Shown: piece after piece, positions 5,407-57,577 of the stretch | Layout: every line of letters begins with the position of its first letter | Position numbering within the stretch: the stretch's first letter is position 1 | Source of the DNA: Argyresthia goedartella | Taxonomy: Eukaryota; Arthropoda; Insecta; Lepidoptera; Argyresthiidae | DNA length: 64,000 nt | Direction of reading: 5' to 3' | NCBI GenBank assembly: GCA_949825045.1 | Contig: OX463820.1 | Location: 6,460,501-6,524,500 of the forward strand | Notes under the pieces: generated by a model | Told to the model about the DNA's origin: nothing | Database searches by the model: none | Seen by the model: only the letters and a program-made list of their open reading frames with translations | Position numbers and translations under genes: made by a program

Positions 5407-5638
5407 CGTGTAGATGGTGGGTATGTAGGTGGTGGGTGCGTGAGCAGCGAGATCTTTTTAGTTAATAAATTTTTGTGTGGCGAGGTATCACCTCAATTAT
5501 GTTATTGTTATATATATTTTTTTAACTATATGTGGTTGCTTATAATTAGCCTTTAGTTTATCATAGTTCAAAACTGTTTCATAATATAGCTGTAAGCTTC
5601 CCAGAAAAATAATAAAATAAAATAAAATAAATAAAATA
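5407..5638 (+). other. LINE-A 3' untranslated region and A-rich tail
   Basis: This short 3' UTR follows the ORF2 stop. It ends in an AATAA/AAAATA-type simple repeat (about 5607-5638) directly abutting Dong sequence that starts AGGCAGGATC. The tail marks the 3' end of the retrotransposed LINE. Confidence 0.75.
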
Positions 5639-9665: not shown

Positions 9666-9687
9666 AATAATAATAATAATAATAATA
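9666..9687 (+). repeat. TAA repeat: 3' tail of Dong copy 1 and target of copy 2
   Basis: About seven TAA/AAT units end Dong copy 1. The next base starts the C-rich 5' end of Dong copy 2. Dong of Bombyx is known to sit in TAA repeats, so this is both the tail of one element and the insertion site of the next. Confidence 0.85.
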
Positions 9688-9722
9688 CCCCCCAAGGGAA
9701 CCACCTTGACGTGGTTGGGGGG
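9688..9722 (+). ncRNA. Dong copy 2 5' terminus: strong stem, possible HDV-like ribozyme start
   Basis: CCCCCCAA at 9688-9695 can pair with TTGGGGGG at 9715-9722. Inside it, AACCAC (9699-9704) and GTGGTT (9711-9716) form an alternative hairpin around CTTGAC. Some LINEs (R2, RTE) carry HDV-like self-cleaving ribozymes at this position. After the BEL-3 insertion, 14888-14950 supplies AAGCTG/CAGCTT, a possible P4, and CCTT, a possible P2 partner for AAGG. The nested double pseudoknot is only partly convincing by eye; treat it as a candidate. Confidence 0.35.
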
Positions 9723-9982
9723 TGTTACGGCGGCTATATTGGTCAGGATCCTTGGTCAGGTTAAATAAAAACAGCTTAGTCTTCACTTTATGTACTTGTA
9801 TTTACTGTAGTAATGGATTAAAATGGATTATTTGCGTGAAGCGCTATTCGAGGGTTTTAAAGGTAAAAAAGAATATGGCGGCTGCCAGTGCTGCCACACA
9901 CACAGTCGACGACGTTTTGTTTCTTCTATCGCGCTAAGGAGTTGCGCTTACTCGCCAGTCATGGCGTTTCGTTTCTTGAACA
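9723..9982 (-). repeat. BEL-3 3' LTR
   Basis: This 260-bp repeat is identical to 14623-14882 apart from one substitution. It is the 3' LTR because pol reads toward it. The pol-B stop codon (9959-9961) lies inside it, so the end of pol overlaps the LTR by about 20 bp. Confidence 0.92.
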
Positions 9983-11221
9983 TAGTCCCGGCCTTGGAAC
10001 ACCCTGTTCCAACATTGGTAATAAGCAGAGACGATTGAACGCTCGTCGGATGGTTCCTGATGTCGTAAGTATGTCAGCAACGCGTGCAATTCCATCTGTA
10101 CCAGGATACACGTTGGTTATTCTTCCCAGCAGCCATTTGTTTGGAGGTAGTCTGTCGTCCTTTACTAGGACCATGTCACCATTCTGAAGTTGTCCGCCAT
10201 CCTTACGCCATTTCTGTCTGGTCTGCAATTCTGTGATGTATTCCTTATAGTACCTGTTCCAGAAGTGCAATTTCATTTGCTCGACTCTTTTGTGTCGTGG
10301 AAGATAGCTGGTTGATGGCTCAGTGTTGATAGGATATGGCAACATCGTGAGCGTTCGTCCTAGGATAAAATGTGCTGGGGTCAAGGGAATTAAATCGGAA
10401 GGATCGGATGATAATGGTGTAAGAGGACGTGAGTTAAGTATGGCCTCTATTTGAGTTAAAGTTGTGTACATTTCTTCAAATGTCAAATGTGCTGATAAAA
10501 CACGTTTAAGGTGATGTTTTACAGACTTAACCGAACCTTCTACTAACCCGTTAAAATGTGGACTATAGGCTGGTGAAAAATTAAAATTTATTGAAAGGTC
10601 AGACGAATAAGAACCGAATTCATCGCTGTATGCTTTTAAAAACCTCCCTAGTTCGTTGCAACCCCCCACAAACGCGGTGCCGTTGTCGGAGAAGATGTTG
10701 ACAGGCCTTCCCCGCCTCGCAATGAAACGATTAAGGGCAGCAATGAATGCTTCCTTTGTTAGGTCGGTCACAAGCTCTAAATGGACTGCCCTCACAGACA
10801 AACAGACGAAAATGCAAATATACGATTTTATCAAACTGCATCCTCTACCTTTTCTGTTCGCTATGAGAATGGGACCTGCGTAGTCTACGGCAGTATTGGT
10901 GAAAGGAAAATGCGCAGTGATCCGCTCTTTAGGTAGATTTCCCATAATAGGTTGTATGGTACGGCCTGAAAATCTGCAGCATTTAATACAACTTCGAAGT
11001 ACTTTTCGAGCTAAGTTACGTCCATTTATAACCCAATATTTATGTCTGACATTGGATAAAAGAAGCTGTGGTCCTGCGTGTAATAACAATTTGTGGTAAT
11101 ATTCGAAAATAATGTTGGAAACATGATGTGAAGCGTGTAAAATGATAGGATGTTTTGTGTCATAGTCGTAATGAGAGTTTGAAAGACGACCCGCAACCCT
11201 TATTATGCCGTTGTCATCCAT
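9959..11221 (-). pseudogene. BEL-3 pol, downstream part: integrase and C-terminal DUF5641-like domain
   Basis: This is the second half of Pol, in a different frame from the upstream part and overlapping it by 19 bp (11203-11221). One indel around the MDDNGIIRVAGRLS sequence therefore split the polyprotein. Features in order: zinc-binding region (LLLHAGPQLLLSNVRHKYWV, CIKCCRF), integrase core with Asp in AVDYAGPI, Asp in FSDNGTAFVG and Glu in NGLVEGSVKS, then the BEL/Pao-typical C-terminal domain (MVLVKDDRLPPNKWLLGRI). The integrase joins cDNA to host DNA. The catalytic triad is intact, so the lesion is the frameshift alone. Confidence 0.88.
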
Positions 11222-14142
11222 GAAGGGATTGAGAGGAAGTAGTTTATTTTAACAGGTAATTGTTTTTTATTTAATAATAACGTGTACTCTTCAGGGAAAT
11301 TTTCAACTTGTGCAACTTTGCATATTAATAAAATTGCTGAATTTAATTCGCTAACTCGTAAGTGACCAGATGGTTTTTTGCCGCGACAGATAGAAATAAA
11401 TCTATTTATGTAGGCAAAAACATGTTGCAATCTCATAAATGTGGAAATGTCACGAATGCTATCAGCAAACGATTTTTCAACTGAAAAGTGACAAATGACC
11501 TTAAGTTCTGGTAGCTCTTGTTCAGTATTGTGTCTTGGTGAACTCGGCCACGTATCTTCAGAATGTTTTAAAAATGACGGTCCTGACCACCACAAGCTTG
11601 AATCTTTAAGTTGTGTTCCATTTAGACCTCTAGAGCCGATATCTGCAGGATTCAGATTGGTTGGAACATAACGCCAGGTGTAAATACTTGTGACTTCTTG
11701 AATTTCATTGACTCTATTGAGTACAAATGGTTTTAAATTTGAAGTATTGGTTTTAAGCCATCCTAAAACTATGGTTGAATCGCACCAAAATATGCATTTA
11801 TCAATTTTCAATCGCAATGAATCTAATACCTTTTTAGCGAGTCGGGTAGCCAATAATGCACCACATAATTCTAATCTGGGTATTGTCATGGTTTTGAGTG
11901 GTGACACTTTATTTTTGGCAATTATTAGACTTACCTTGACTGTATCTGATACGGTTCTCAAATAAATGCATGTACTATAAGCCAATACAGATGCGTTACA
12001 AAAAATTTGCATTTCTATAGTTTTAGGTGATTCATTTGAAATCCATCGTGGAATTTTAATGTCATTGAGTAAGGGTAATTTTTTAAGAATGTCATGCCAA
12101 ATATCTTGAATATTTAAAGGAATTGTCTCTTCCCAAGAGACATTTAATGCCCAAAGTCTCTGTAATACAGTTTTAGCTTGTAGAATAAAAGGACTTATGA
12201 GACCTAATGGGTCGAATATTTGTGCAATAATAGACAGTATTGATCTTTTAGTAATTTTAGTTTGTTTAGGTATTTGTATATTGTATAGAAATGTGTCTTC
12301 TACAGAGTTCCAAAGTAAACCTAAAGTTTTTGAAAATTCGTCTTTATTTAAGTTTAATATTGTATGTTGGCTATCTGGAGTGTTATTGTCATATTCAGTG
12401 TTAATGTTTTCTATTTCTTTTAGAATTTTTGAACTATTGGAACGCCAGTTACGTAAGTGAAACTTAGCTTCTTCTAATTTATGGATAACACCCTTACAGA
12501 TGTGAATAAGCTCTTCTTCAGAGTCAGCACCAGAGAGCCAGTCGTCAACATAGAAATCTTTAAGGATAGCTTCTGAGACCGCTTTATCCTCACACTCCTT
12601 GCCTAATTGTACAATGCATCTCGTTGCAAGAAAAGGCGCGGAGGCAGTACCATATGTTATGGTGTTTAATTTGTATATTTGGATAGGCTCGCTGGGCTCC
12701 GATCGCCAAAGTATTTGTTGAAGGTTTCTTTGTTCTTCGGCTACTAAGACCATTCTATACATTTTTGCAATGTCTGATGAAACTACTATTTTGTGTTGCC
12801 TAAATCTTAATAAAATTGAAACTAGATCGTCTTGAACAGTAGGACCTACCATTTGTATGCTGTTGAATGATAAGCCAGACGATGAAGCCATGGAAGCGTC
12901 GAACACGCACCTGAGACCTGACGTGAGGCTGGATTCACGTAAAATTCCGTGATGTGGATAAAAAAAGGAAGTAGTATTAGTGTTAGCATTGAAGTTTTCA
13001 TTTTTTGTCATATGACCCATGTCTATGTATTCATTCATAAACTGTAAATACTGTTTTTTGAAATTTGGATCACGATCAAATCGACGCTCTAAAGAGAGGA
13101 ATCTAGTTAACGCCTGCTGATAGGAGTCTCCTAATTTTTCTGGGGACTCCTTCAGAGGAATTGTCACGATAAATCGTCCGTCTGAATCCCTCTTAGTAGT
13201 TTTTATAAAGTGTTCCTCACATTCTCGCTCAACCTTAGACATTGAATGAGATGGAGACACTGATTCGAGTTCAAAAAATCTCGAAAGTTGTTCTTGAACT
13301 TTATTATCTGATAAGAAGTGACAATGGACTGTATTTGATTGTTTATTATTTGATGTTGATTGTTTATTATATATATTTTGTATTGAACCGGAAATTGACC
13401 ATCCGAATTTGGTTTCATGAAGTGACGGGTTATTTTTTCCGAGGTTGATGTGATTAGCTCCTAGCACATCCCAAAATATGTCTGCCCCTAGAAGCATGTC
13501 GATGGGTGCAGGCATGTGAAATGATGGATCTGCAAGTTGTATATGATCAGGAATGTTCAACAATGTTTTGTCAATGTGTGTAGTAGGTAACAGTTGAGTA
13601 ATGCGTGGTATCACAAAGCATTGTGATTTTCTTGAATAGTTACCTACTAATGAGGATATTGAAACGTCACAACGTTTAGAAACGCGTGAGGTTTGATTGT
13701 TTAATCCTTCAACTGTACCCGAGGACGAGTAAGTTTTAAGTTTTAATTTTGTACATTGATTCTCTGTAATAAAGCATGAAGTGCTTCCGTTGTCTAGTAA
13801 GACACGGATTTTGTGTTTCATACCTGAATGGTCAGTAATAAAAATGAGAGCTGTACATAGTAAAACATGGTTATTGTGTGTAGCTGACAATGCTATATTA
13901 TTATCAAATGTTTGTTCTGTTTGTGAGCTGAATGGCTCTTCATGCTCTTGATGAGCTGCTGACAACACTACACTGCTATTGGCTGCAGGAGTGGGTACTT
14001 GGACTTGGTCTGTATTGTTATTTACTTGTGAATTGTTTTTATGTAACAATGTGTTATGACGCTGAGAACAGTATTTACATAAACTCAATTCACAAGTAAA
14101 TAACAATACAGACCAAGTCCAAGTACCCACTCCTGCAGCCAA
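11203..14142 (-). pseudogene. BEL-3 pol, upstream part: protease, RT and RNase H
   Basis: The open frame starts inside the inverted repeat; its first ~20 residues are an artefact of that duplication. True element coding begins about LCKYCSQRHNTLLHK, which looks like the last Gag zinc knuckle. Then come the aspartic protease (LLDNGSTSCFI), the BEL-type linker (PIDMLLGADIFWDVLG), RT with SSDIAKMYRMV and the YVDD box (FYVDDWLSGAD), and RNase H (IFCNAS with Asn where Asp-Ala-Ser is usual, PRLELCGALLA, WCDSTIVLGWL). HVP-like and LNPADIGSRG motifs follow. IFCNAS suggests loss of the first RNase H Asp. The open frame ends at the frameshift near 11221. Confidence 0.85.
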
Positions 14143-14175
14143 TAGCAGTGTAGTGTTGTCAGCAGCTCATCAAGA
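13946..14175. repeat. Perfect 90-bp inverted repeat with 50-nt loop in BEL-3
   Basis: Bases 13946-14035 are the exact reverse complement of 14086-14175; the loop is 14036-14085. The left arm is normal BEL-3 coding sequence just after the residual zinc knuckle. The right arm is an inverted copy lying where Gag should be. The structure marks the breakpoint of the gag deletion. Confidence 0.95.
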
Positions 14176-14622
14176 TCAATCCGGCTCGAAGGACCATATG
14201 TAATAGGAATGAATCGGAACGAACTCACGGTAATCTCTGGTTGTTGTAGGTACTTAGTTTGGTGATCTCATGGCTTGGGTACACAAATTCCTTTGATCAT
14301 GGCTTAGTTACACAAATTCCTTTGTGCATAGCTTTCCTTTGCTGAATTTGATAGATGTCACTGTGTGACGCTGACGTGGATGGGCTCGATGCGGAGATTG
14401 TAGGATTCCCGTAGCTTGCCACTTATGCCCACGCAGGATTGAATGCTTTGACGTAGATTTTGAATGCAGATTGTTAGGTGCTGCTGTGACTTGAGATGAA
14501 TGCAGATTGTAGATGCTGCTTTGGGTTTCCTCTTTGAACCCTTCCTTTGGTGGATTTGTTTGACCGCAAGGTAACCTCCGTTGCAGGCGTAGGCGCAAGT
14601 TGAATCCGGCTCGAAGGACCAA
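14176..14622 (-). other. BEL-3 leader with primer-binding site and a second PBS-like copy
   Basis: Next to the 5' LTR, 14603-14621 reads on the minus strand TGGTCCTTCGAGCCGGATT, in the position of the tRNA primer-binding site. The same 19 bases recur at 14178-14196, right beside the inverted repeat. Between them is about 400 bp of leader with a small direct repeat (CACAAATTCCTTTG at about 14281 and 14311). No Gag domain is recognisable in any frame here. Confidence 0.7.
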
Positions 14623-14882
14623 TGTTACGGCGGCTATATTGGTCAGGATCCTTGGTCAGGTTCAATAAAAACAGCTTAGTCTTCACTTTATGTACTTGTA
14701 TTTACTGTAGTAATGGATTAAAATGGATTATTTGCGTGAAGCGCTATTCGAGGGTTTTAAAGGTAAAAAAGAATATGGCGGCTGCCAGTGCTGCCACACA
14801 CACAGTCGACGACGTTTTGTTTCTTCTATCGCGCTAAGGAGTTGCGCTTACTCGCCAGTCATGGCGTTTCGTTTCTTGAACA
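14623..14882 (-). repeat. BEL-3 5' LTR
   Basis: This is the upstream LTR in the element's orientation. It would carry the promoter and the start of the R region. TSD GGGGG follows at 14883-14887 in Dong sequence. Confidence 0.92.
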
Positions 14883-14887
14883 GGGGG

Positions 14888-15567: not shown

Positions 15568-15668
15568 TGTGGTATATGCGCGCGGCGTGCCTGCCCGCGC
15601 GCCGGTTGTCTACCTGCACTGCAGTAATAAACTAGCTACGAGCTGACACGGTTGTCTCATTTACATCA
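15568..15668 (+). repeat. Gypsy-1 5' LTR (101 bp)
   Basis: It begins TGTGGTATATGCG and ends TTTACATCA, and holds an AATAAA-like TAATAAAC. It differs from the 3' LTR only at one A/T position near 15576. 101 bp is very short for an LTR. Confidence 0.93.
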
Positions 15669-15711
15669 TTGGCGCTGCGGACCGGTCGCCTACGCGTGCA
15701 AATAAAAAAAA

Positions 15712-16793
15712 ATGGCGAATATAATTATCGGAACCTTGTTCGTGTTTGATCATAATAACCAGGAATGGCCGATATTCTTCAGTCGGTTATCCCAGTTTAT
15801 CAAGCTGAACAAGATACCAGCAGAAGATAAAAGTGCCGTGTTGCTGACTCATTTGTCTGACGAATCATACCGTCTCGTGCGTGATTTGATTCACCCAAGT
15901 GCAATCGAAGGTCAAACATTTGACCAGCTAGTTACAATACTCAACGGGCATTTTACACCCAAGAGGTCAACGTATGCCGACAGGGCGAAATTCTACGAAG
16001 CGACGAAAAATGATGGTGAAAATGCCGAACAATGGGCTGCGCGACTAAGGGGACTTGCTATACATTGCGGGTTCGGCGCGGCCTTAGATCAACTCTTGTG
16101 CGATCGATTCGTTCTGGCGTACAAGCCAGGCCCAGAACGAAACCGCCTTTTCGAACAAGATGCGGTGACGCTGACGCTGTCCAAAGCGATTGAAGTGGCG
16201 CGGCAGGTGGCGTGTGCGCGAGCAGCTCGGTCTATCGGCACAACGTCCACGATCAACATCAAGGAGGAGCCCGTGTTCAAGGTCAGCAGCCGACGCGCGC
16301 CCGCGCACGGCGCAGGCGGCGGCAGCAGCGCGCAGCGACACCAGGGTGACGGCGGGCCAAGGTGCTCGGTTTGCGGTATGAAGAATCACGATACAGAAAA
16401 GTGCCGTTATAAGGGTTACAAGTGTGAAGTTTGCGGCGTAAAAGGACACCTTAAAAAGGTGTGTGTTAGTAAATCGCGTAGTTACAGCAGAGTGCACAAC
16501 ATCGATATGGAGTCCGAGGATGCTGACGACGACGGTAACGACTGTACTCAGTGTAAGGAATGCCAAATGTTCAATTTGAGGTGCGTGAGTTTTAAGACTA
16601 TATTATTGTCAGTTCTCGTGAACAATGTAAAATCATATGAGATGGAACTCGATTCAGGATCTAGTGTTAGTGTTATGTCGAGTAAAATGTATAATGACCA
16701 TTTCGCAGATATACCTCTAAAGAAGTGCGATGTAAAGATGTGCTTTTATAACGGACATAATATAACACTGGAAGGATGTTTGTCATTAAGGTT
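15712..16793 (+). pseudogene. Gypsy-1 Gag and start of protease, cut by BEL-1
   Basis: The frame starts at ATG 15712 (MANIIIGTLFVFDHNNQEW). Residues ~10-170 look like a Ty3-type capsid (retrotrans_gag: ENAEQWAARLRGLA, DRFVLAYK). Two CCHC knuckles follow (CSVCGMKNHDTEKC, CEVCGVKGHLKKVC), then an acidic linker, then the protease active site MELDSGSSVSVMSS. The frame runs into the BEL-1 LTR after LSLRF. Gag and protease share one frame, with no stop between, as in several insect Ty3 elements. A locally GC-rich stretch at 16190-16360 encodes an Ala/Arg/Gly-rich linker. The downstream protease part lies at 24122 onward. Confidence 0.88.
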
Positions 16794-17325
16794 TGTTCGA
16801 TTCCAAATCGATATTCGATCGATGGTTTCTGAACGGCCATTTTGAATTTGACGTTGCTGCCAACCTAGCAGTTTTTTTGACAACTGACAGACGGAAGCCC
16901 TCGCAAGTAAACGCGTTTTGGTTAGGGTATTGAAATTAAATCGCAGTCCATCTGGAATGTATTCGGGTTTCCCTCAGGATTGTCTATATAGCTGAGTGTG
17001 TTGTGGTTCCCCGAACCAGATAAAGTTCGCATTTTCGTGGCCGATTGGTTTTTACCACGTAACTTAGGTTATCCTGTGTTGGAACACTGTGCTCATTGAA
17101 GGAGGTTGGCTGAAGAACCTGTCTACCAAGAAGAGCCTAGGGTGCACCCGGGCCTTGCAGAGAGACAGGAGGTTGACGGGACCGAAGCACAGACCAGGTT
17201 AGATCGACCCCAATTACTTCAGCTCGGTGAATCGCCGACGTTCACGCTTCTTGGCAACTGATCGTTACGCTACCTCGTAGCTGATGGGCCCCTACGAGGT
17301 CATTAGGTGCTGAGAAGCCTGAACA
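16794..17325 (+). repeat. BEL-1 5' LTR
   Basis: It starts TGTTCGATTCC and ends GAAGCCTGAACA. Relative to the 3' LTR it lacks 18 bp (CTGGCCCGCCAGTCATAG-like) near 17100. The sequence TTTTGGTAGCTAGAGCG just after 17325 occupies the primer-binding position. Confidence 0.93.
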
Positions 17326-17856
17326 TTTTGGTAGCTAGAGCGTGGCTTCCTGAGATTTGCAGCCGTCAAGGGCTCCAGGAAGGCACGATTTGGGACTATC
17401 AATCTGTAGGTATAGGCGGTTATTAGGTAACTTGGTTGTGTTCCTATATCCACATAGATTGGTAGTATTGTAAGCTATAGGTCTATTGCTGGTAGTAGAT
17501 AGACAGATATTGAATTGAATTACCAGTTAGTCAATCTATTAGTGGTCTAGTAGTGCTATTGAATGAATGTTTGGTTAACATAGGTAGTTACATCTATTGA
17601 TAGCAGGCTATTACATTGTTTTCAGTTTATAGCAATTTATAACTTGAACTAATATTGACTATCTGTGTGTGTTATAATGATAAAGGGAAACTAAATTGTA
17701 TTTACAGAATTTATATAGATATAAAACTCGGTTCCTATTGTTTAAGGAAAACAACATTGTTTAAGTTGTGGTTTAGGGTTCCCTCGTTTGGGTTGTAGAC
17801 TGGAGGGTCCAATAAAATTGAGTTACTGCAAATTGTGAGTAAGTATCGTTCCGATC
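17326..17856 (+). other. BEL-1 untranslated leader
   Basis: About 530 bp lie between the LTR and gag, with no ORF. Compared with BEL-2 (31204-31819) it lacks a block of roughly 85 bp near 17510 that contains ACCAGTTGTACTGAG; outside that block the two are nearly identical. The block may be deleted here or inserted there. Confidence 0.7.
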
Positions 17857-19662
17857 ATGTCGTTATCTGAAATCCAGAAGGGTGTTTCTAAGGAACTCAG
17901 ATGGTTTTCCTCCGCACACGGTCTGATAGACCGTTTAGATAGGCATGATGTGGTATTGGAGCGGTCTATGGACGTTAAGGAACGTTACAATAGGGTGCTC
18001 GAATTGTCCGCGCAGGCGGAATCAGTTGATGGTTGCGCACCTGACAGGCTGTCACGGTTGCTAGGGGATGTCGACCAATGTATGGAGATGGCAGCTGCTA
18101 TCACGCAGAAGGCTGCGGACATACGTAGACAGCGCGAGTCCAGCCATGGTGGTGACATTGAAGCACCTCTGCCGCTTCAGGGTTCGGGGTCCAGGTTACC
18201 TGCCATAACTATGCCTACTTTTGACGGAGTGTCCGGTGAATGGATGAGCTTCATCAATCTGTTCGACAGTTTGGTGCACATGCGATCGGACATTACCAAG
18301 TCTGTCAAGATGGCTCAGCTGGTGGCAGCATTGAGGGGTGAGCCTAGGGAGCTGGTCGCTCATTTGACAGTTACGGAGGGTAACTATGAAACGGCCAGGC
18401 AATTGTTGGTCAGACGTTACCATAACAAACGGAGGTTGGCCGATGCCCAACTGAACCGTTTGTTTAGTATCCCGGTTGTGAACAAGGTCGGGGCCATACA
18501 GACGGAGGTTTTGAACCCATTGTTGTCCGTCACCAAGGCTCTAGAGAATCTTGGACTTCCGGTTGGTGAATGGTCGTACCTACTGTTGTACATTGTACTT
18601 TCCCGCCTACCCGCTGACGTGCAGACTCGTTTCGAACAGTCTCACGGGAGGTCGGCCGAGGACCTGCCCGCCTTCTCCGACTTGGTCGGATTCTTGGAAG
18701 AGGAGGCTCGACGGGCAGAGAATTTGGGGTTGACGGTCACCCATCCTTCGGAGCCACAGAGAGCTGCCGGGAGCGCTGTGAGTAGGGGCCCTCCGACGAG
18801 GAAGGACCGCACCAACCGGCAGTCGTATGGGACTGTGAGTGAATTGACCCCACATGGTGAGACCTGCCCATGTTGTAGGCAGATTGGCCATGCTGTGGCC
18901 AATTGCAATAAGTTCGGGGAACTTAGGGTTCAGGGACGGCGCCGGATGGCCAAGCAGCGGAGCTGGTAATTCCTGTGCCTCGGGCCACACATGGCTAGGG
19001 ACTGCACGCGCACAAAAATGTGCGGATATTGTGGTGGGGCCCACAACAATCTGTTGTGCATGAACCGGTCCGGCCAACAGCCTCCACAGGGCCGTATCCA
19101 GGGTGACACGGCATGGGGCCCTGAGAATTCGTTTGCGACTCGGAGCGCAACTCAGGGGCCAACGTCCCCACGTCCACAGGGCCGTACCCAGGGTGACACG
19201 GCATGGGGCCCTGAGAATTCGTTTGCGACTCGGAGCGCAACTCAGGGGCCAACGTCCCCACGTGCACAGGGCAGTACCAGGGTGCAGGGCCGCACTCAGG
19301 ACCATTACATGGGGGGCCCTGAGTTTTCGGTTGCGACTCAGCATCCGACCCAGCGGGACATTGGGTGTGTTGAGCAGGCCGTAACGGGCGGGTGGCATGG
19401 GATGCCTTCGAGCTATGCGGGTGCGGTTCGGACGCCGCCTCAGTTGTCGCCCCGCTCGTCGCCTCGTCCTCGTCGGTCACATGTGATGTCCCCCCCGCTC
19501 ATGGAGCGGCCACGGTTGAATTCACGCCCACCCCCCTTTACGGGGAATCGTAGGTTGGGAATGGAACCGGCGCGTGGGCCATTTGTACAATGGGACCCTC
19601 TGGCGTATAGCTGCATACCTGATCGGTTACAGGCACAGTGGGGCCCCGGGGGTCCTCGCTAG
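17857..19662 (+). pseudogene. BEL-1 Gag with a premature stop
   Basis: ATG 17857 opens MSLSEIQKGVSKELRWFSSA. Residues ~100-280 form the BEL/Pao capsid-like region (LPAITMPTFDGVSGEWMSF, YHNKRRLADAQLNRLF). Cys/His knuckles follow (CPCCRQIGHAVANC, then the CFLC.GPHMARDC and MCGYCGGAHNNLLC types). The codon after SW at 18967 is TAA, where BEL-2 has TGT (Cys), removing the second and third knuckles from the product. The frame then stays open to 19662 through a Gln/Pro/Gly-rich repeat region. Translation to 18969 would give 370 residues instead of about 600. Confidence 0.9.
19087..19290 (+). repeat. 90-bp tandem repeat in BEL-1 gag
   Basis: Units begin at 19087 and 19177 (CAGGGCCGTA...), period 90 bp or 30 residues (QGRTQGDTAWGPENSFATRS...), followed by a partial third unit at 19267. 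It is in frame, so length changes keep Gag readable. BEL-2 has the same array and an extra 108-bp duplication. Confidence 0.88.
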
Positions 19663-19680
19663 GAATTTGCGGCCCAACCA

Positions 19681-22600: not shown

Positions 22601-23534
22601 TGATCGTGTGAATGAGGTCAGACCGTTTTCAGGTGTTGGTACGGATTTTGCAGGACCGTTTATGGTGAAGAGTTCACGATTGCGTACCGCTAGGCAATAC
22701 AAGGCGTACCTATGTGTGTTTGTTTGTTTATCCAGCAAGGCGGTACATCTCGAGCTCGTTGCTGATCTCTCGACAGAGGCTTTCATTGCTTGTTTGGATA
22801 GGTTTGTTTCTCGAAGGGGACTTCCAACTTTGATCCGCTCTGATAACGGCACTAACTACATCGGTGCGGAACGATACTTACGAGAGATAGTCAACTTTTT
22901 GAATGTAAATAAAGTGGATATTGGAACGGCCCTCTCCCGTCGGGGTATACAGTGGACCTTCAGCCCACCGATTTGCCCCCACTGGGGTGGGATTTTTGAG
23001 GCCGTAGTTAAGTCAGCTAAGACGCACTTGGGGCGTATAGTAGGTCAGACCGCGCTGACTTTTGAGGAGCTCGCGACATTGTTTTGTAAGATCGAGGCCG
23101 TTCTCAATTCGCGACCGTTGTGTCCGCTCAGCTCGGATCCAAATGACCTGGAGGCTCTGACCCCAGGCCATTTCTTGATAGGACAGCCACTTAACGCGTT
23201 GCCCGAGCACCCCTTCGAGGGAGTGAAATTATATCGGTTGTCAAGGTATCAGATGTTGCAGCAGTTTACTCAGAATTTCTGGAAGCGTTGGTCGCTCGAG
23301 TATCTGCATATCTTACAACAGCGCCTTAAGTGGACTGACAAAACTAGCCCCCCTAGTGTTGGTGACCTCGTTCTGGTTAAGGATGCTAACCTACCGCCAC
23401 TACGTTGGCGCAGGGGGCGCATTGTTAACTTGTTCCCTGGCAAGGACGGGACCCCCCGGTCTGCAGAGGTTCTAGTAGGAGGCTCGGTTCTAAAACGAGC
23501 GGTAGCAACGTTGTCTCGGCTGCCCGTAGATTAG
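19681..23534 (+). pseudogene. BEL-1 Pol: protease, RT, RNase H, integrase (one frameshift)
   Basis: The first frame is open at 19681-21231, the second at 21165-23534; the overlap and loss of register near 21150 show a 1-nt indel. Order: aspartic protease (ALLDSGAQGCIV), PVDLLLGADVLG, RT (ADIRMMFRQTV, YVDD in DLYVDDVCTGA), RNase H (GFCDASERGFAAAV, KLELSGAALL, then WTESQIVLCWL), HHCC region (HAGCNALLATPQREFWIL, CMPCYR), integrase (GTDFAGPF, RSDNGTNYIG, GGIFEAVVKS), and a C-terminal DUF5641-like domain (VGDLVLVKDANLPPLRW). The RNase H Asp seen in BEL-2 (WTDSQ) is Glu here, so that site may also be impaired. Confidence 0.9.
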
Positions 23535-23566
23535 GGGACAGGTGGGTGCCTGTCCGGGCGGGTGAT

Positions 23567-24116
23567 TGTTCGATTCCAAATCGATATTCGATCGATGGTT
23601 TCTTAACGGCCATTTTGAATTTGACGTTGCTGCCAACCTAGCAGTTTTTTTGACAACTGACAGACGGAAGCCCTCGCAAGTAAACGCGTTTTGGTTAGGG
23701 TATTGAAATTAAATCGCAGTCCATCTGGAATGTATTCGGGTTTCCCTCAGGATTGTCTATATAGCTGAGTGTGTTGTGGTTCCCCGAACCAGATAAAGTT
23801 CGCATTTTCGTGGCCGATTGGTTTTTACCACGTAACTTAGGTTATCCTGTGTTGGAACACTGTGCTCATTGAAGCTGGCCCGCCAGTCATAGGAGGTTGG
23901 CTGAAGAACCTGTCTACCAAGAAGAGCCTAGGGTGCACCCGGGCCTTGCAGAGAGACAGGAGGTTGACGGGATCGAAGCACAGACCAGGTTAGATCGACC
24001 CCAATTACTTCAGCTCGGTGAATCGCCGACGTTCACGCTTCTTGGCAACTGATCGTTACGCTACCTCGTAGCTGATGGGCCCCTACGAGGTCATTAGGTG
24101 CTGAGAAGCCTGAACA
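23567..24116 (+). repeat. BEL-1 3' LTR
   Basis: The 550-bp 3' LTR retains the 18 bp missing from the 5' LTR. TSD AGGTT follows. A short spacer with GGGGACAGGTGGG (about 23533-23560) precedes it and may serve as the polypurine tract. Confidence 0.93.
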
Positions 24117-24121
24117 AGGTT

Positions 24122-27100
24122 AACATATAATAATGTTAGCGACGATATTTTGTTTTACGTTGTACAAAATGGCGGCCCACCTCTTATTGGTCGTGATTTC
24201 ATGGCGAGGTTTAGGGTCACATTTTGCTCAAATAATAATATCAATGCGGGTATAAGTGACGTGGAGGTGCGCGAGCTATTGACCGAGTATGACGAACTAT
24301 GGAAAGATGAGTTAGGGACTTATAATAAGAGCAAAGTTCATCTTCAACTAAAAGGAAATGCTGTACCACGATTTTTCAAAGCGCGCACGGTACCTTTTGC
24401 CCTAAAGACAAAAGTAGAAGCAGAATTGGACCGGTTGACCGAGTTAGGTATTTTAGTGCCTGTTAGCCATTCAGATTACGCAACACCAATCGTACCTGTA
24501 CTTAAAGATAATGGTAAGATCAAAATTGCAGGTGATTTTTCTGTTACGCTGAATAAAGACCTAGAAGTAGAGAAATACCCGATGCCCTTAATCGAAGAAG
24601 TTTTTGCAAAAATAGGAGGGGGGGAAAGGTATTCTAAAATTGATTTGTCTAACGCGTATAATCAATTCGTCCTGTCGGATCAATCACAAATCCTTACCAC
24701 GATAAGTACATCGAAAGGGCTATACAAATATACACGTTTAGTCTATGGCTTATCTAATGCACCGGCCATATTCCAGAAAGCCATGGTAACGCTGTTGGTA
24801 GGCATTGAAGGCGTAAGTATCTGGTTGGATGACATCTGCTGTACAGGGCCTAATAAAGAAACTTACTTAAAACGACTAAGAGAAGTTTTAAAAAGATTAA
24901 AAGATGCAGGTCTTAGGTTACAAAAGGATAAATGTGTATTTTTCCAAGATAGTGTCACTTATCTCGGGTACATTATCGACAAAAACGGTCTTCATACATG
25001 TCCCAGTAAAATAGAGGCAATAATGAATGCCTCCGACCCGACGAATGTAACAGGATTAAAAAGATTCCTTGGAGTAGTAAACTACTATAGGAATTTTATT
25101 CCAAATGCTTCGTCACTAATGAGTCCGCTGCACGAGCTACTTCGAGGCGGGGCGGGGTGGGGGTGGGGCGCGAGGCAGCGTGCGGCGCTGGCGGCGGTGA
25201 GGCGCGAGCTGGCGAGCGAGCGCGTGCTGGCGCACTTCGACCCGGCGGCGGCGCAGCTGGTGCTGACGGTGGACGCCGGGCCGGGCTGGCTGGGCGCGGT
25301 GCTCGCGCAGCAGCAGGCCAACGGCACGGAGCGACCGCTGGCGTTTGCCTCGAGGTCATTGGTGGATAGCGAGCGAAACTATAGCCAGATCAAAAAGGAG
25401 GCTACGGCTATAGTATTCGGAGTGAAGCGATTCCATCAGTACCTGTACGGCCGAAACGATCCATTTTTACTTAAAACAGACCACAAGCCCTTGTTGTCGA
25501 TATTTGGATTAAAAAACGGTATATCGGTAACAACGGCGGCACGTTTACAGAGATATGCGCTGATATTATCTGCCTATAACTATGAGGTGCAGTATACATC
25601 GGGCGAAAACAATACGGTAGCTGATTATTTTTCTCGAGCACCGTTGGGAAATAAGAGTTCGGCTTTGAACAGTATCGAGCCAGACAGTGTGGTAGACTGT
25701 AATTTTATGCATCGAAATGTTTTACCAATTAGATTCGAAGATATATTAAAAGAAACCGAGAAAGACCCGGCGTTACAAACAGTAATTAGGTATATGAAGT
25801 ATGGATGTCCACGAAAAATAAACTTTAGTAAGATCGTTCCATATTATAATCACAAAACGGATTTACAATATGATAATGGATGTTTATTGAGAGGGCACAG
25901 AGTAGTAATTCCTAGTGTTTATAAAGACAGGATGTTAGAGGAGTTACATTCAGGACACTTGGGAATTACAAAGACGAAAAGTATGGCGCGCAGTAGGATG
26001 TGGTGGCCGGGAATAGACAGTGATATTGAAAGATTTATAGGTACATGTGCACTGTGTGTTCGCGTGCGATCCGCTCCGCCGCGCGCGCCGCCCGCCGCGT
26101 GGCCGCAGCTGACCGGCGCATGGCAACGGGTCCACCACCACCACCTACCTCGTGGTTGTTGACGCGTTTAGCAAATGGGTCGAATGTATTCGTATGAATA
26201 GTGGCACCTCCACTCACGCGCTGATTGTAAAACTAAAACAGTTATTCGCATTATGGGGAATCCCTTGTGTTTTAATATCGGACAATGATGTGAAAATTAA
26301 TTCTGTAGAATTTAAAAACTTCTGTATGTACAATGGTATGAATTACATAACCTCGCCAGTTTACCACCCATGCAGTAATGGGCAAGCAGAGAATTCCGTA
26401 AAAACGTGTAAAAATATGTTGAAACGTATAATTAGTGAAGGGAGCAGTAAAGATAGCATAGCAGACAAATTACTGGGTCACCTATTTGAGTACAGGAACT
26501 CAGTACACTGTACCACGGGCATGTCGCCTGCTAGGTTAATGATAGGCAGGGAACTAAGATCAAGAATTGATCTTGTTCTCCCAGAACATAGAAAACAAAG
26601 CTGTCAAAGAGATAAATTAAAAGAGAGTAGTCGTTTCGTACCTGGAGATGTGGTTTGGGCTCGTTGGTTCTCTCAGAGGAAACAAAGTTGGTCAATAGGT
26701 ATTGTAAAGAAAGAGTTAGGCCACCGGATGTTTGAAATTTTGTTTAAAGATTATGGTACAGTTTGTAAAAGACATGTTGACCAATTAATTAAGAATACTG
26801 GGCAAACTATGCGTGACATTGTGGTTTCAGAAGAGCATTGTGTAACGTCAGACGACGAGCCCGACCCAGGTCCGCTTTGCGGTGAGGTGTCTTCGCCTGC
26901 TACTCCACCACCAGCACTGACACCAGCTCCGAGCGCGGAGTTGCCGCAGCTGCAGGGTGACCATAATGAGGACGTGTCGACTGGTCAAGTGGAGGAGGAG
27001 GAGGAACAATGGTCTGAGGCAATAGAACCTAACGAACATAGCGAGACGGAGCCAGTTGCTGATGTAGACGTTGAGGCTGATGCGAGAGCTGAGACAGGCC

Positions 27101-27165
27101 AGCCCCAGCATCCCTCTCGCTCGCACAGGGAGAGAACTAAAGTAGATTATAAGAAGTTCTTCTGA
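24122..27165 (+). pseudogene. Gypsy-1 protease end, RT, RNase H and integrase
   Basis: This resumes after the BEL-1 TSD in the frame of the protease (VVQNGGPPLIGRDFMARFRV). RT has DFSVTLNKDL, YSKIDLSNAYNQFVL and a WLDD box (VSIWLDDICC) in place of the usual YxDD. RNase H begins VLTVDAGPGWLGAVLA, then DHKPLL. The integrase zinc finger is HSGHLGITKTKSMARSRMWW plus CALC. At about 26125-26155 the frame breaks: the WQRVH.D.AGP region is truncated, so the first integrase Asp is missing and the rest (VVVDAFSKWVE, LISDNDVKINS, NGQAENSVKT) continues at 26152-27165. The C-terminus is acidic, with no chromodomain. Confidence 0.88.
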
Positions 27166-27278
27166 TTAGATTGTAAGATATTAGTTAGTTAGTTATGTAA
27201 TTAGTTAGTTACGTGTTTAATTATTAATGTGTCTATTTCTATTGTTAATAGATGCTCTTCTAAGTAAGGTTGGAGGAA

Positions 27279-27379
27279 TGTGGTATTTGCGCGCGGCGTG
27301 CCTGCCCGCGCGCCGGTTGTCTACCTGCACTGCAGTAATAAACTAGCTACGAGCTGACACGGTTGTCTCATTTACATCA
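27279..27379 (+). repeat. Gypsy-1 3' LTR (101 bp)
   Basis: It matches the 5' LTR except one base (TATTTGCG versus TATATGCG). TSD ATATC at 27380-27384 is followed directly by Dong coding sequence continuing from 15567. Confidence 0.93.
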
Positions 27380-27384
27380 ATATC

Positions 27385-30655: not shown

Positions 30656-31203
30656 TGTTCGATTCCAAATCGATATTCGATCGATGGTTTCGGAACGGCC
30701 ATTTTGAATTTGACGTTGCTGCCAACCTTGCAGTTTTTTTTTGACAACTGACAGACGAAAAGCCCTCGCAATGTAACGCGTATTGATTAGGGTATTGAAT
30801 TTAAATCGCAAGCCATCTGGAATGTATTCGGGTTCCCCTCAGGATTGTCTATATAGCTGAGTGTGTTGTGTTTCCCCGAACCAGATAAAGTTCGCATTTA
30901 CGTGGCCGATTGGTTATTCCCACGTAACATAACCTGTGTTGGAACACTGTGCTCGTCGAAGCTGGCCTGCCAGTCATACCTGGTTGGCTGAAGAACCTGT
31001 CTACCAAGAAGAGCCTAGGGTGCACCCGGGCCTTGCAGAGAGACAGGAAGTTGACGGGACCGAAGCACAGACCAGGTTAGATCGACTCCATAAGTATTAG
31101 CTCGGTGAATCGCCGACGTTCACACTTCTTGGCATCTGATCGCTACGCTACCTCGTAGCTGATGGGCCCCTGCGAGGTCATTAGGTGCCGAGAAGCCTGA
31201 ACA
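30656..31203 (+). repeat. BEL-2 5' LTR
   Basis: It begins TGTTCGATTCC and ends CCTGAACA, like BEL-1, but differs from the BEL-1 LTR at many sites (for example CGCAATGTAACGCGTATTG versus CGCAAGTAAACGCGTTTTG). TTTTGGTAGCAAGAGCG after it is the primer-binding position. Confidence 0.93.
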
Positions 31204-31819
31204 TTTTGGTAGCAAGAGCGTGGTTTCCTGAGATTTGCAGCCGTCAAGGGCTCCAGGAACCCACGATTTGGGACTATCAATCTGTAGGTATAGGCGGTTA
31301 TTAGCTAACTTGGTGTTGTTCCTGTATCCACATAGATTGGTAGTATTGTAAGCTATAAGTCTATTGCTGGTAGTAGACAGACAGATATTACAGTTTTCCC
31401 TAAATTACCAGTTGTACTGAGATGTGACTCAGAATAGTAGGTACTCAACTTAGGTACATTGTAGGTGAATTGAAATTTGCATTGAAGTACCAGTTAGTCA
31501 ATCTATTAGTGGTCTAGTAATGCTAATGAATGTTTGGTTAACATAGGTAGTTACATCTATTGATAGCAGGCTATTACATTGTTTTCAGTTTATAGCAATT
31601 TATAACTTGAACTAATATTGACTATCTGTGTGTGTTATAATGATAAAGGGAAACTAAATTGTATTTACAGAATTTATATAGATATAAAACTCGGTTCCTA
31701 TTGTTTAAGGAAATCAACATTGTTTAAGTTATAGTTTAGGGTTCCCTCGTTTGGGTTATAGACTGGAGGGTCCAATAAAATTGAGTTACTGCAAATTGTG
31801 AGTAAGTATCGTTCCGATC
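31204..31819 (+). other. BEL-2 untranslated leader
   Basis: About 615 bp without an ORF. It is near-identical to the BEL-1 leader except for an additional block around 31390-31490 that includes ACCAGTTGTACTGAGATGTG. It runs directly to the gag ATG. Confidence 0.7.
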
Positions 31820-33733
31820 ATGTCGTTATCTGAAATACAGAAGGGTGTTTCTAAGGAACTCAGATGGTTTTCCTCCGCACACGGTCTGATAGACCGTTTA
31901 GATAGGCATGATGTGGTATTGGAGCGGTCTATGGACGTTAAGGAACGTTACAATAGGGTGCTCGAATTGTCCGCGCAGGCGGAATCAGTTGATGGTTGCG
32001 CACCTGACAGGCTGTCACGGTTGCTAGGGGATGTCGACCAATGTATGGAGATGGCAGCTGCTATCACGCAGAAGGCTGCGGACATACGTAGACAGCGCGA
32101 GTCCAGCCATGGTGGTGACATTGAAGCACCTCTGCCGCTTCAGGGTTCAGGGTCCAGGTTACCGGCCATAACTATGCCTACTTTTGACGGAGTGTCCTGT
32201 GAATGGATGAGCTTCATCAATCTGTTCGACAGTTTGGTGCACATGCGATCGGACATTACCAAGTCTGTCAAGATGGCTCAGCTGGTGGCAGCATTGAGGG
32301 GTGAGCCTAGGGAGCTGGTCGCTCATTTGACAGTTACGGAGGGTAACTATGAAACGGCCAGACAATTGTTGGTCAGACGTTACCATAACAAACGGAGGTT
32401 GGCCGATGCCCAACTGAACCGTTTGTTTAGTATCCCGGTTGTGAACAAGGTCGGGGCCATACAGACGGAGGTTTTGAACCCATTGTTGTCCGTCACCAAG
32501 GCTCTAGAGAATCTTGGACTTCCGGTTGGTGAATGGTCGTACCTACTGCTGTACATTGTACTTTCCCGCCTACCCGCTGACGTGCAGACTCGTTTCGAAC
32601 AGTCTCACGGGAGGTCGGCCGAGGACCTGCCCGCCTTCTCCGACTTGGTCGGATTCTTGGAAGAGGAGGCTCGACGGGCAGAGAATTTGGGGTTGACGGT
32701 CACCCATCCTTCGGAGCCACAGAGAGCTGCCGGGAGCGCTGTGAGTAGGGGCCCTCCGACGAGGAAGGACCGCACCAACCGGCAGTCGTATGGGACTGTG
32801 AGTGCATTGACCCCACATAGTGAGACCTGCCCATGTTGTAGGCAGATTGGCCATGCTGTGGCCAATTGCAATAAGTTCGGGGAACTTAGGGTTGAGGGAC
32901 GGCGCCGGATGGCCAAGCAGCGGAGCTGGTGTTTCCTGTGCCTCGGGCCACACATGGCTAGGGACTGCACGCGCACAAAAATGTGCGGATATTGTGGTGG
33001 GGCCCACAACAATCTGTTGTGCATGAACCGGTCCGGCCAACAGCCTCCACAGGGCCGTATCCAGGGTGACACGGCATGGGGCCCTGAGAATTCGTTTGCG
33101 ACTCGGAGCGCAACTCAGGGGCCAACGTCCCCACGTCCACAGGGCCGTACCCAGGGTGACACGGCATGGGGCCCTGAGAATTCGTTTGCGACTCGGAGCG
33201 CAACTCAGGGGCCAATGTCCCCACGTGCACAGGGCGGTACTAGGGTGCAGGGCCGCACTCAGGGTCATCACATGGGGGGCCCTGAGTTTTCGGTTGCGAC
33301 TCAGCATCCGACTCAGCGGGCAATGGGGCCACAAGCACGCAGCCACCCAGGGGTGCAGGGCCGCACTCAGGGTCATCACATGGGGGGCCCTGAGTTTTCG
33401 GTTGCGACTCAGCATCCGACTCAGCGGGACATTGGGTATGTTGAGCAGGCCGTAACGGGCGGGTGGCATGGGACACCTTCGAGCTATGCGGATGCGGTTC
33501 GGACGCCGCCTCAGTTGTCGCCCCGCTCGTCGCCTCGTCCTCGTCGGTCGCATGTGATGTCCCCCCCGCTCATGGAGCGGCCACGGTTGAATTCACGCCC
33601 ACCCCCCTTCGGGGGGCGTCGTAGGGTGGCAATGGAACCGGCGCGTGGGCCATTTGTACAATGGGACCCTCTGGCGTATAGCTGCCTACCTGATCGGTTA
33701 CAGGCACAGTGGGGCCCCGGGGGCCCTCGCTAG
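31820..33733 (+). CDS. BEL-2 Gag (intact, 637 residues)
   Basis: This is the only long retroelement ORF here without a visible lesion. ATG 31820 gives MSLSEIQKGVSKELRWFSSA. A capsid-like region spans ~100-280; the zinc-knuckle block is ~335-400 (CPCCRQIGHAVANC, CFLCLGPHMARDC, MCGYCGGAHNNLLC). A Gln/Gly/Pro-rich tandem-repeat linker covers ~405-545 and a Pro-rich C-terminus ends LQAQWGPGGPR. Gag packages element RNA in virus-like particles. A TAG stop separates it from pol, which continues in the +2 frame starting ~40 bp downstream. Compared with BEL-1 it keeps Cys where BEL-1 has a stop, and has a 36-residue duplication. Confidence 0.88.
   Translation: MSLSEIQKGVSKELRWFSSAHGLIDRLDRHDVVLERSMDVKERYNRVLELSAQAESVDGCAPDRLSRLLGDVDQCMEMAAAITQKAADIRRQRESSHGGDIEAPLPLQGSGSRLPAITMPTFDGVSCEWMSFINLFDSLVHMRSDITKSVKMAQLVAALRGEPRELVAHLTVTEGNYETARQLLVRRYHNKRRLADAQLNRLFSIPVVNKVGAIQTEVLNPLLSVTKALENLGLPVGEWSYLLLYIVLSRLPADVQTRFEQSHGRSAEDLPAFSDLVGFLEEEARRAENLGLTVTHPSEPQRAAGSAVSRGPPTRKDRTNRQSYGTVSALTPHSETCPCCRQIGHAVANCNKFGELRVEGRRRMAKQRSWCFLCLGPHMARDCTRTKMCGYCGGAHNNLLCMNRSGQQPPQGRIQGDTAWGPENSFATRSATQGPTSPRPQGRTQGDTAWGPENSFATRSATQGPMSPRAQGGTRVQGRTQGHHMGGPEFSVATQHPTQRAMGPQARSHPGVQGRTQGHHMGGPEFSVATQHPTQRDIGYVEQAVTGGWHGTPSSYADAVRTPPQLSPRSSPRPRRSHVMSPPLMERPRLNSRPPPFGGRRRVAMEPARGPFVQWDPLAYSCLPDRLQAQWGPGGPR
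33050..33440 (+). repeat. In-frame minisatellites in BEL-2 gag (90-bp and 108-bp units)
   Basis: Two 90-bp units begin at about 33050 and 33140. A second array follows with units starting at about 33246 and 33354 (GTGCAGGGCCGCACTCAGGG), period 108 bp. BEL-1 has only one unit of the second type. Both periods are multiples of three. Confidence 0.88.
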
Positions 33734-33742
33734 GAATTTGCG

Positions 33743-35377
33743 GCCCAACAATTTGTTGCCCCCCAACCGGAGACGGTGGTGTTACCGATCGCCTCTGTGC
33801 TTGTTTGGGATTTGGCGGGCAACCCAACATACGTTCGCGCCCTATTAGATTCTGGAGCTCAGGGCTGCATTGTATCGAATGATTTAGCAAAATGGTTGGG
33901 CCTCAATATAAATAATGTATCGCTGCCGAGGAAATTGGTCCCTGCTGGGGATTACAGGGCAACCCTTCACGGGTTTTGTGATGCCTCTGAACGAGGGTTT
34001 GCGGCAGCGGTTTATTTGCGAACCGTCACCTCCACCGGGGAGGTCGACGTGCGTTTGGTTTTGGCAAAAAGCAAGGTAGCGCCTATTCGGACAAGGATGA
34101 CAATTCCAAAACTGGAACTGTCCGGGGCTGCTCTTTTGACCAAACTTTTGAATCACACTCTAACAGTGTTGCGTGGGTCAGTGGTTTTGGAGGATACGGT
34201 GTACGCGTGGACGGACAGCCAGATTGTTTTGTGCTGGCTGAAGGCTTCGGTCCATAACTTAGAGGTTTTTGTTGCGAACCGTGTCTCCCAGATTGTGTCG
34301 TCTGAGGTCCCACTGACCTGGAGGCATGTACCAGGAGAATTGAACCCGTCTGATTGTGCATCCAGGGGATGTCGGGCTCCTGAACTCGTTAGACACCATT
34401 TGTGGTGGGGACGACCCTGGCTTGCCAGGAGAGAATCGGACTGGCCCCACAGCCATGTAGTAGTATCTTCGGATCATGGCCCCAGAGCGGCCGTGCATGT
34501 TACCCAGAAGGCTGAGGACCCTGACGCCGGGTTTCTGCTGGACCGGTATAGCTCATGTGTGTTTGTTTGTTTATCCACCAAGGCGGTACATCTCGAGCTC
34601 GTTGCTGATCTCTCGACAGAGGCTTTCATTGCTTGTTTGGATAGGTTTGTTTCTCGAAGGGGACTTCCAACTTTGATCCGCTCTGATAACGGCACTAACT
34701 ACGTCGGTGCGGAACGATACTTACGAGAGATAGACAACTTTTTGAATGTAAATAAAGTGGATATTGGAACGGCCCTCTCCCGTCGGGGTATACAGTGGAA
34801 CTTCAGCCCACCGAGTTGCCCCCACTGGGGTGGGATTTTTGAGGCCGTAGTTAAGTCAGCTAAGACGCACTTGGGGCGTATAGTAGATCAGACCGCGCTG
34901 ACTTTTGAGGAGCTCGCGACATTGTTTTGTAAGATCGAGGCCGTTCTCAATTCGCGACCGTTGTGTCCGCTCAGCTCGGATCCAAATGACCTGGAGGCTC
35001 TGACCCCAGGCCATTTCTTGATAGGACAGCCACTTAACGCGTTGCCCGAGCACCCCTTCGAGGGAGTGAAATTGTATCGGTTGTCAAGGTATCAGATGTT
35101 GCAGCAGTTTACTCAGAATTTCTGGAAGCGTTGGTCGCTCGAGTATCTGCATATCTTACAACAGCGCCTTAAGTGGACTGACAAAACCAGCCCCCCTAGT
35201 GTTGGTGACCTCGTTCTGGTTAAGGATGCTAACCTACCGCCACTACGTTGGCGCAGGGGGCGCATTGTTAACTTGTTCCCTGGCAAGGACGGGACCCCCC
35301 GGTCTGCGGAGGTTCTAGTAGGAGGCTCGGTTCTAAAACGAGCGGTAGCAACGTTGTATCGGCTGCCCGTAGATTAG
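33743..35377 (+). pseudogene. BEL-2 Pol with two large in-frame deletions
   Basis: The frame is open throughout, but domains are missing. After the protease start (ALLDSGAQGCIVSNDLAKWLGL) it jumps at about 33907 directly into RNase H (NNVSLPRKLVPAGDYRATLH), dropping about 1.6 kb with the rest of protease and all of RT. RNase H motifs are present (FCDASERG, KLELSGAALL, WTDSQIVLCWL). At about 34554, DRYSS is fused to CVFVCLSTKAVHLE, dropping about 0.6 kb with the HHCC finger and the first integrase Asp (GTDFAGPF in BEL-1). The remaining integrase has RSDNGTNYVG and GGIFEAVVKS, and the C-terminal domain is intact. No polymerase activity is possible. Confidence 0.92.
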
Positions 35378-35409
35378 GGGACAGGTGGGTGCCTGTCCGG
35401 GCGGGTGAT

Positions 35410-35954
35410 TGTTCGATTCCAAATCGATATTCGATCGATGGTTTCGGAACGGCCATTTTGAATTTGACGTTGCTGCCAACCTTGCAGTTTTTTTTTGACA
35501 ACTGACAGACGAAAAGCCCTCGCAATGTAACGCGTATTGATTAGGGTATTGAATTTAAATCGCAAGCCATCTGGAATGTATTCGGGTTCCCCTCAGGATT
35601 GTCTATATAGCTGAGTGTGTTGTGGTTCCCTGAACCAGATAAAGTTCGCATTTACGTGGCCGATTGGTTATTCCCACGTAACATAACCTGTGTTGGAACA
35701 CTGTGCTCGTCGAAGCTGGCCTGCCAGTCATACCTGGTTGGCTGAAGAACCTGTCTACCAAGAAGAGCCTAGGGTGCACCCGGGCCTTGAGAGACAGGAA
35801 GTTGACGGGACCGAAGCACAGACCAGGTTAGATCGACTCCATAAGTATTAGCTCGGTGAATCGCCGACGTTCACACTTCTTGGCATCTGATCGCTACGCT
35901 ACCTCGTAGCTGATGGGCCCCTGCGAGGTCATTAGGTGCCGAGAAGCCTGAACA
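35410..35954 (+). repeat. BEL-2 3' LTR
   Basis: 545 bp; it matches the 5' LTR apart from two substitutions and loss of 3 bp (GCA within CCTTGCAGAGAG). TSD ACAGT follows at 35955-35959. Confidence 0.93.
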
Positions 35955-35959
35955 ACAGT

Positions 35960-36345
35960 GCTAGACAAAATTAACAAACTTGTATACCTTATAGACATTG
36001 CTATACCCAACACTCACAATCTTAACAGCACGCAAGCTACAAAGATAGCTAAATACAATCATCTTTCAATAGAGATCCAGGCTCAATGGTGGGTAAAGAC
36101 AGGCAAAACAGTACCCATTATAATATCTACAACCGGTATCAGCCCCAAATCATTACACTCGTACTTAAAAACAATACATCTACATCCATCAACATATACA
36201 CTACTGCAAAAGGCCGCATTTAAAGACTTGCAGGAACGTCCGCAAATTCATGGGAAATTCATCTTAATCATTCATGCATCACTATGCACTTGGCTTAGAC
36301 CCGTGCCGTAAAATAACCTCCTATGAATAGGAGAGAAAAAGAAAG
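35960..36345 (+). pseudogene. Dong copy 2: restriction-like endonuclease C-terminus and 3' UTR
   Basis: It continues the endonuclease interrupted at 30655. The open frame 35958-36311 reads LDKINKLVYLIDIAIPNTHN, the Asp-bearing second half of the PD-(D/E)xK site, then IAKYNHLSIEIQAQWWVK and PIIISTTGISPKSLHSYLK. This segment is open with no stop, ending LCTWLRPVP. A 3' UTR of only about 35 bp follows before the TAA tail, matching copy 1 (CTTGGCTACGGCCAGGACT...). Confidence 0.8.
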
Positions 36346-36360
36346 AAATAATAATAATAA
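36346..36360 (+). repeat. TAA-type tail ending Dong copy 2
   Basis: Four to five AAT/TAA units. The adjoining GTATTTATTCC reads on the minus strand GGAATAAATAC, a polyadenylation-signal-like end of the neighbouring LINE. The repeat may therefore combine the tails of both elements. Confidence 0.75.
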
Positions 36361-40413: not shown

Positions 40414-40417
40414 AAAC

Positions 40418-57572: not shown

Positions 57573-57577
57573 ACCAC

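What the first reader, a model, noticed from the sequence alone, without database searches (positions are those of the whole stretch)
9688..36360. Four-level nested insertion resolved base by base
Dong copy 2 contains BEL-3, Gypsy-1 and BEL-2; Gypsy-1 contains BEL-1; and Dong itself lies in the TAA tail of an older LINE. Every LTR insertion has a perfect 5-bp duplication (GGGGG, ATATC, AGGTT, ACAGT) and the interrupted frames resume exactly across each one. This gives a relative clock: old LINE, then Dong copy 2, then BEL-3, BEL-2 and Gypsy-1, then BEL-1 inside Gypsy-1.
Basis: seen in the sequence. Interest (0 to 1): 0.75.

Follow-up and report, generated by a model that had tools for sequence, protein, structure and literature searches.

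The report
Nested jumping genes, order confirmed
In a stretch of DNA probably from a moth or butterfly, jumping genes have landed inside one another four deep and most of the order of landing can be read from the sequence; it is a very clean example of something common rather than a new kind of thing.

Summary
Four LTR retrotransposons have clear limits and perfect 5-bp duplications: BEL-3 GGGGG, Gypsy-1 ATATC, BEL-1 AGGTT, BEL-2 ACAGT. Three sit in a Dong-type LINE (copy 2); BEL-1 sits in Gypsy-1. Continuity of the hosts was tested: the Gypsy-1 and BEL-2 sites align to a second Dong-type element with no gap at the junction; at the BEL-1 site the host pieces abut exactly in 65 of the 69 relatives matching both pieces, of 120 given. 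The BEL-3 site rests on its duplication alone.

One correction matters. The 'older LINE' is itself Dong-type, collinear with copy 2 and in the same orientation. So copy 2 stands in the TAA tract of a related element, as Dong's known (TAA)n preference predicts.

The clock is partly supported. LTR divergences (K2P 0.004 to 0.010) have overlapping intervals; nesting, not divergence, puts Gypsy-1 before BEL-1, and BEL-3, BEL-2 and Gypsy-1 stay unordered. Copy 2 is clearly more decayed than its inserts.

New member of a known kind. Side leads: a possible BEL-1/BEL-2 mosaic and a shared amber codon before the BEL protease.

The parts
808..9687 (+).
   Evidence: 19 tblastn matches in the same order as in Dong copy 2, some overlapping; TAA units at 9666-9686
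9666..9686 (+). TAA tract, 7 units, left of Dong copy 2
9688..36346 (+). Dong-type LINE copy 2 in its interrupted state (own pieces about 9688-9722, 14888-15567, 27385-30655, 35960-36346)
   Evidence: Pfam RVT_1 in 29160-29801
9723..14882 (-). BEL-3, LTRs 260/260 nt, TSD GGGGG; no gag domain in the two ORFs searched; inverted duplication at 13943-14178
15568..27379 (+). Gypsy-1 in its interrupted state, LTRs 101/101 nt, TSD ATATC
   Evidence: best named relatives lepidopteran
16794..24116 (+). BEL-1 inside Gypsy-1, between its protease and RT regions; LTRs 532/550 nt, TSD AGGTT
30656..35954 (+). BEL-2, same family as BEL-1, LTRs 548/545 nt, TSD ACAGT; lacks 1595 and 633 nt present in BEL-1
36347..36358 (+). 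TAA tract, 4 units, right of Dong copy 2

Best explanation
Successive retrotransposon landings. A Dong-type LINE (copy 1) came first. A related Dong-type LINE (copy 2) inserted in the same orientation into the TAA tract at its 3' end, by target-primed reverse transcription. Copy 2 then decayed. Later Gypsy-1, BEL-2 and BEL-3 integrated into copy 2 with 5-bp staggered cuts, and BEL-1 integrated into Gypsy-1. Shown here: element limits, duplications, continuity of the host at three sites, homology of the two Dong-type elements. Inferred: the enzymology (established knowledge of LINEs and LTR retrotransposons) and that copy 1 preceded copy 2.
For: Four of four perfect 5-bp duplications at LTR pairs. 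Dong copy 1 aligns across the Gypsy-1 site (45/61 columns identical left, 40/60 right) and the BEL-2 site (43/61, 41/60) with no gap at the junction. Gypsy-1 pieces, searched apart, abut with offset 1 in 65 of 69 relatives that match both; of 120 given, 69 matched the left piece and 112 the right. Matches of Dong copies 1 and 2 run in the same order. Decay: in the RT part of copy 2 (about 28904-30023) relatives show 1 frameshift and 2 stops, against 1 private stop and 3 apparent frame breaks in about 14 kb of open coding of BEL-1, BEL-3 and Gypsy-1 (my count), roughly nine-fold denser in copy 2. BEL-1 and BEL-2 each have their own matching duplications, which argues against an assembly swap between the two.
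Against: No empty-site copy from the genome could be fetched. 4 of the 69 BEL-1-site relatives do not abut; two of these are among the 25 rows printed (P0148, P0152), with partial matches only. 51 of the 120 relatives given had no match to the left piece. No relative tests the BEL-3 site, and its duplication is a G run. The decay argument assumes that copy 2 landed intact, and the LTR-element count rests on stop-to-stop ORFs, which favour open stretches.
Confidence: 0.93

Rival explanations
1. Assembly join: repeat-rich loci were fused and the nest is partly artefact.
For: BEL-1 and BEL-2 are alike over kilobases, the kind of repeat that misleads assemblers.
Against: Each copy has its own matching pair of duplications and the hosts resume at both sites; a swap between the copies would break these.
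Confidence: 0.03
2. Copy 2 did not use a tail made by copy 1: two Dong-type elements hit the same older TAA microsatellite one after the other, so no new landing site was created.
For: Dong is described as targeting (TAA)n (passages of PMC7998251, and PMC2887409; the latter calls such targets pre-existing), so the TAA right of copy 1 may be leftover target.
Against: Nothing found here speaks against it; one locus cannot separate the two readings.
Confidence: 0.5
3. The LTR elements landed at clearly separate times that LTR divergence can rank.
For: Gypsy-1, older than BEL-1 by nesting, has the highest value (K2P 0.010 against 0.004).
Against: That value is one substitution in 101 bases; all four 95% intervals overlap.
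Confidence: 0.1

Closest known systems
Dong (R4 clade) non-LTR retrotransposon, first from Bombyx mori
   Same: Flanked by TAA repeats; RT closest to R2-group proteins among solved structures; B. mori Dong was assayed with 7 TAA repeats upstream (passages of PMC3774820)
   Different: The 1993 Dong paper itself was not held
BEL/Pao LTR retrotransposons
   Same: Peptidase_A17 and DUF5641 in all three, DUF1759 in BEL-1 and BEL-2; 5-bp duplications
   Different: BEL-2 lacks the RT region and BEL-3 shows no gag domain in the ORFs searched; BEL-1 and BEL-2 share an in-frame amber codon upstream of the protease
Ty3/Gypsy LTR retrotransposons of Lepidoptera
   Same: Relatives 61-67% identical from Cydia, Parnassius, Manduca and Plutella
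   Different: LTRs of only 101 nt; that this is short for the group is recalled
Self-targeting LINE arrays: Zepp of green algae, HeT-A/TART of fly telomeres
   Same: LINEs standing at the ends of like LINEs in one orientation (recalled; PMC8226300 and PMC5537684 seen only as search listings)
   Different: Two members only, at a TAA tract

Membership tests
Dong / R4 clade | Reverse transcriptase of the R2/R4 group | tested here: met
   Pfam RVT_1 3.9e-10; the 3 solved-structure matches are all R2 proteins, best 2.2e-07. No tree was built, so R4 is not separated from R2 by sequence
Dong / R4 clade | C-terminal restriction-like endonuclease | tested here: inconclusive
   No solved-structure match for 35955-36308 at E up to 1; likeness of its motifs to this nuclease is recalled only
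Dong / R4 clade | Insertion in (TAA)n | tested here: met
   7 units left, 4 right of copy 2. TAA tails alone are not diagnostic: the I element also ends in TAA repeats (passage of PMC3747384)
Dong / R4 clade | HDV-like ribozyme at the 5' end | tested here: inconclusive
   A hairpin at the very 5' end is predicted, but the joined 133 nt fold no better than shuffles (z -0.4); no Rfam match at gathering score in the window, where BEL-3 splits the stretch
BEL/Pao | Pao-type pol with Peptidase_A17; 5-bp duplication | tested here: met
   Peptidase_A17 9.4e-51, 3.9e-49 and 2e-25 in BEL-3, BEL-1, BEL-2; duplications
Ty3/Gypsy | RT, RNase H, then integrase; 5-bp duplication | tested here: met
   RVT_1, RT_RNaseH, Integrase_H2C2, then rve over 24114-27165; ATATC

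The most novel reading that the evidence does not exclude
Dong-type elements supply landing sites for one another: they target TAA repeats and stand with TAA repeats at their 3' end, so same-orientation Dong stacks can grow at one spot, and such dead stacks then collect LTR elements. This window would be a two-step stack. It would qualify the remark in PMC2887409 (passage) that insertion into pre-existing repeats such as Dong's would not add repeats to the genome.
Probability: 0.3. Interest if true: 0.45.

Novelty: new member of a known kind. Interest (0 to 1): 0.3.

Why it matters
Nested insertions are common, but here most of the order is fixed by sequence alone, with a relative in the same window serving as empty-site control for two sites. 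Two Dong-type elements in one TAA tract give a testable case for whether a target-specific LINE makes its own targets.

Tried and rejected
Ranking the LTR elements by LTR divergence: rejected, intervals overlap. Relatives of the Dong copy 2 RT piece and of the BEL-1 pol ORF in viral contigs: none confirmed. HDV-like ribozyme at Dong's 5' end: not supported by folding energy or Rfam. Programmed frameshifts: the BEL-1 break near 21138-21231 and the BEL-3 break near 11203-11248 are each continuous in the other element, so both look like private damage; the Gypsy-1 break near 26113-26162 was not examined further. A non-coding comparison (34 of 317 differing) was dropped because it used one fixed offset across indels; the gapped alignment gives 3/170 and 5/200 around there. 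Filters before counts: one search lists only matches of 90 nt or more; one search leaves out self-matches and E above 1e-3; one search used the 120 relatives listed of 993 found, of which only the 7991 best candidates had been scored; one search used the 120 listed of 180. Paper searches: on Dong and TAA repeats, nested insertions in Lepidoptera (10 of 104 listed) and BEL/Pao readthrough (10 of 16 listed, none of the ten holding 'BEL Pao'). In these listings, and in the passages that I read of six papers, I saw no report of a Dong element standing in another's TAA tract; no paper was read whole, so this is weak evidence of absence.

Full report
What was checked. A self-comparison of the window shows four LTR pairs in 9.7-36 kb. 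BEL-3: 260/260 nt, GGGGG, 1 substitution in 260. Gypsy-1: 101/101 nt, ATATC, 1 in 101. BEL-1: 532/550 nt, AGGTT, 2 in 532 and one 18-nt gap. BEL-2: 548/545 nt, ACAGT, 2 in 545 and one 3-nt gap. For BEL-1 and BEL-2 the blast match began one base before the limit used; I set the limits at the TGTT start and AACA end. Pfam puts Pao-type domains in the three BEL elements and Ty3/Gypsy domains in Gypsy-1.

Continuity of the hosts. Dong copy 1 (808-9687) matches Dong copy 2 in 19 tblastn stretches that run in the same order along both, some overlapping, at 36 to 77% amino-acid identity. It is therefore an in-window empty site. Short joined flanks align to it across the Gypsy-1 site (45/61 and 40/60 identical columns) and the BEL-2 site (43/61 and 41/60) with no gap at the junction. 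For BEL-1 the host pieces left and right of the insertion were compared separately with the 120 Gypsy relatives listed: 69 matched the left piece, 112 the right, 69 both, and in 65 of these 69 the pieces abut exactly. For BEL-3 only the duplication speaks, since copy 1 lacks its 5' end inside the window.

The older LINE. That LINE is also Dong-type and points the same way. 7 TAA units stand between it and copy 2, and 4 at the right end of copy 2; runs of four or more units occur four times in the window. Dong's use of (TAA)n is stated in passages of PMC7998251 and PMC2887409, and B. mori Dong was assayed with 7 TAA units upstream (passages of PMC3774820). The two copies are probably different families of one clade: each has P0001 as best match among 120 relatives, at 51% (copy 1) and 56% (copy 2), while they are 43% alike in their longest shared RT stretch. 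Whether copy 1 made the tail or sat in an older TAA tract cannot be told from one locus.

The clock. Nesting gives Dong copy 2 before Gypsy-1, BEL-2 and BEL-3, and Gypsy-1 before BEL-1. LTR divergence adds no ranking. Decay separates the LINE from its inserts: its RT part of about 1.1 kb has 1 frameshift and 2 stops against relatives, while about 14 kb of open coding of BEL-1, BEL-3 and Gypsy-1 shows 1 private stop and 3 apparent frame breaks (my count). BEL-2 would add 3.6 kb and no further private stop or break that I saw. This assumes that copy 2 landed intact.

BEL-1 against BEL-2. The LTRs differ at 28-32 of 521-542 sites and the leader after the 5' LTR at 10 of 184, but synonymous sites inside differ at about 2% (16.5 of 820, summed over four blocks); Fisher p = 0.0003 for 32/542 against 17/820. 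In 200-column windows divergence rises from 2/200 to 13/197 at the 3' LTR. One stretch inside gag (about 19279-19575) is also at 5%, so the picture is patchy. Template switching between two RNA lineages would explain it; faster change of the LTR is not excluded.

A shared stop. BEL-1 and BEL-2 both have an in-frame TAG between gag and protease (19660 and 33731), 39 codons before a DSGA motif (BEL-1; that this is the protease active site is recalled, and Pfam finds an aspartyl protease there). A possible 5-bp stem starting 13 bases after the TAG has a C-G pair in BEL-1 where BEL-2 has A-U (sequences). This hints at readthrough, but two copies are too few: the minimum-energy fold shows 4 of the 5 pairs in BEL-2 and a different pairing in BEL-1.

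Source. The best named relatives of Gypsy-1 are moths and butterflies, so a lepidopteran is likely; this is inference.

Verdict. It is an ordinary kind of structure, unusually well resolved.

Noticed in passing
19660-19662 and 33731-33733: Same in-frame TAG between gag and protease in BEL-1 and BEL-2, followed by a possible short stem in which C-G became A-U between the copies; possible stop-codon readthrough.
   Followed up: partly
16794-24116 and 30656-35954: LTR and leader differ by about 5-6% between BEL-1 and BEL-2 while synonymous sites inside differ by about 2%: a possible recombinant.
   Followed up: partly
33905 and 34554: BEL-2 lacks 1595 and 633 nt present in BEL-1; the first break lies at a 6-base word found on both sides in BEL-1. 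The RT region is lost, yet its two LTRs are nearly identical.
   Followed up: partly
13943-14199: BEL-3 holds an inverted duplication where gag would be expected, next to a second copy of the sequence beside its 5' LTR that looks like a tRNA primer site (the primer reading is by eye and recalled).
   Followed up: no
901-5636, about 6097-6290, 6637-6828, about 7590-8340: Dong copy 1 is itself interrupted: by a LINE with endonuclease and RT domains, a SINE-like piece (by eye), a palindrome of about 190 nt and an inverted RT-like stretch (by eye).
   Followed up: no
51705-59022 and 38218-40414: Further long repeats shared between distant parts of the window; the pair 51705-52585/58146-59022 is 98.6% alike.
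   Followed up: no
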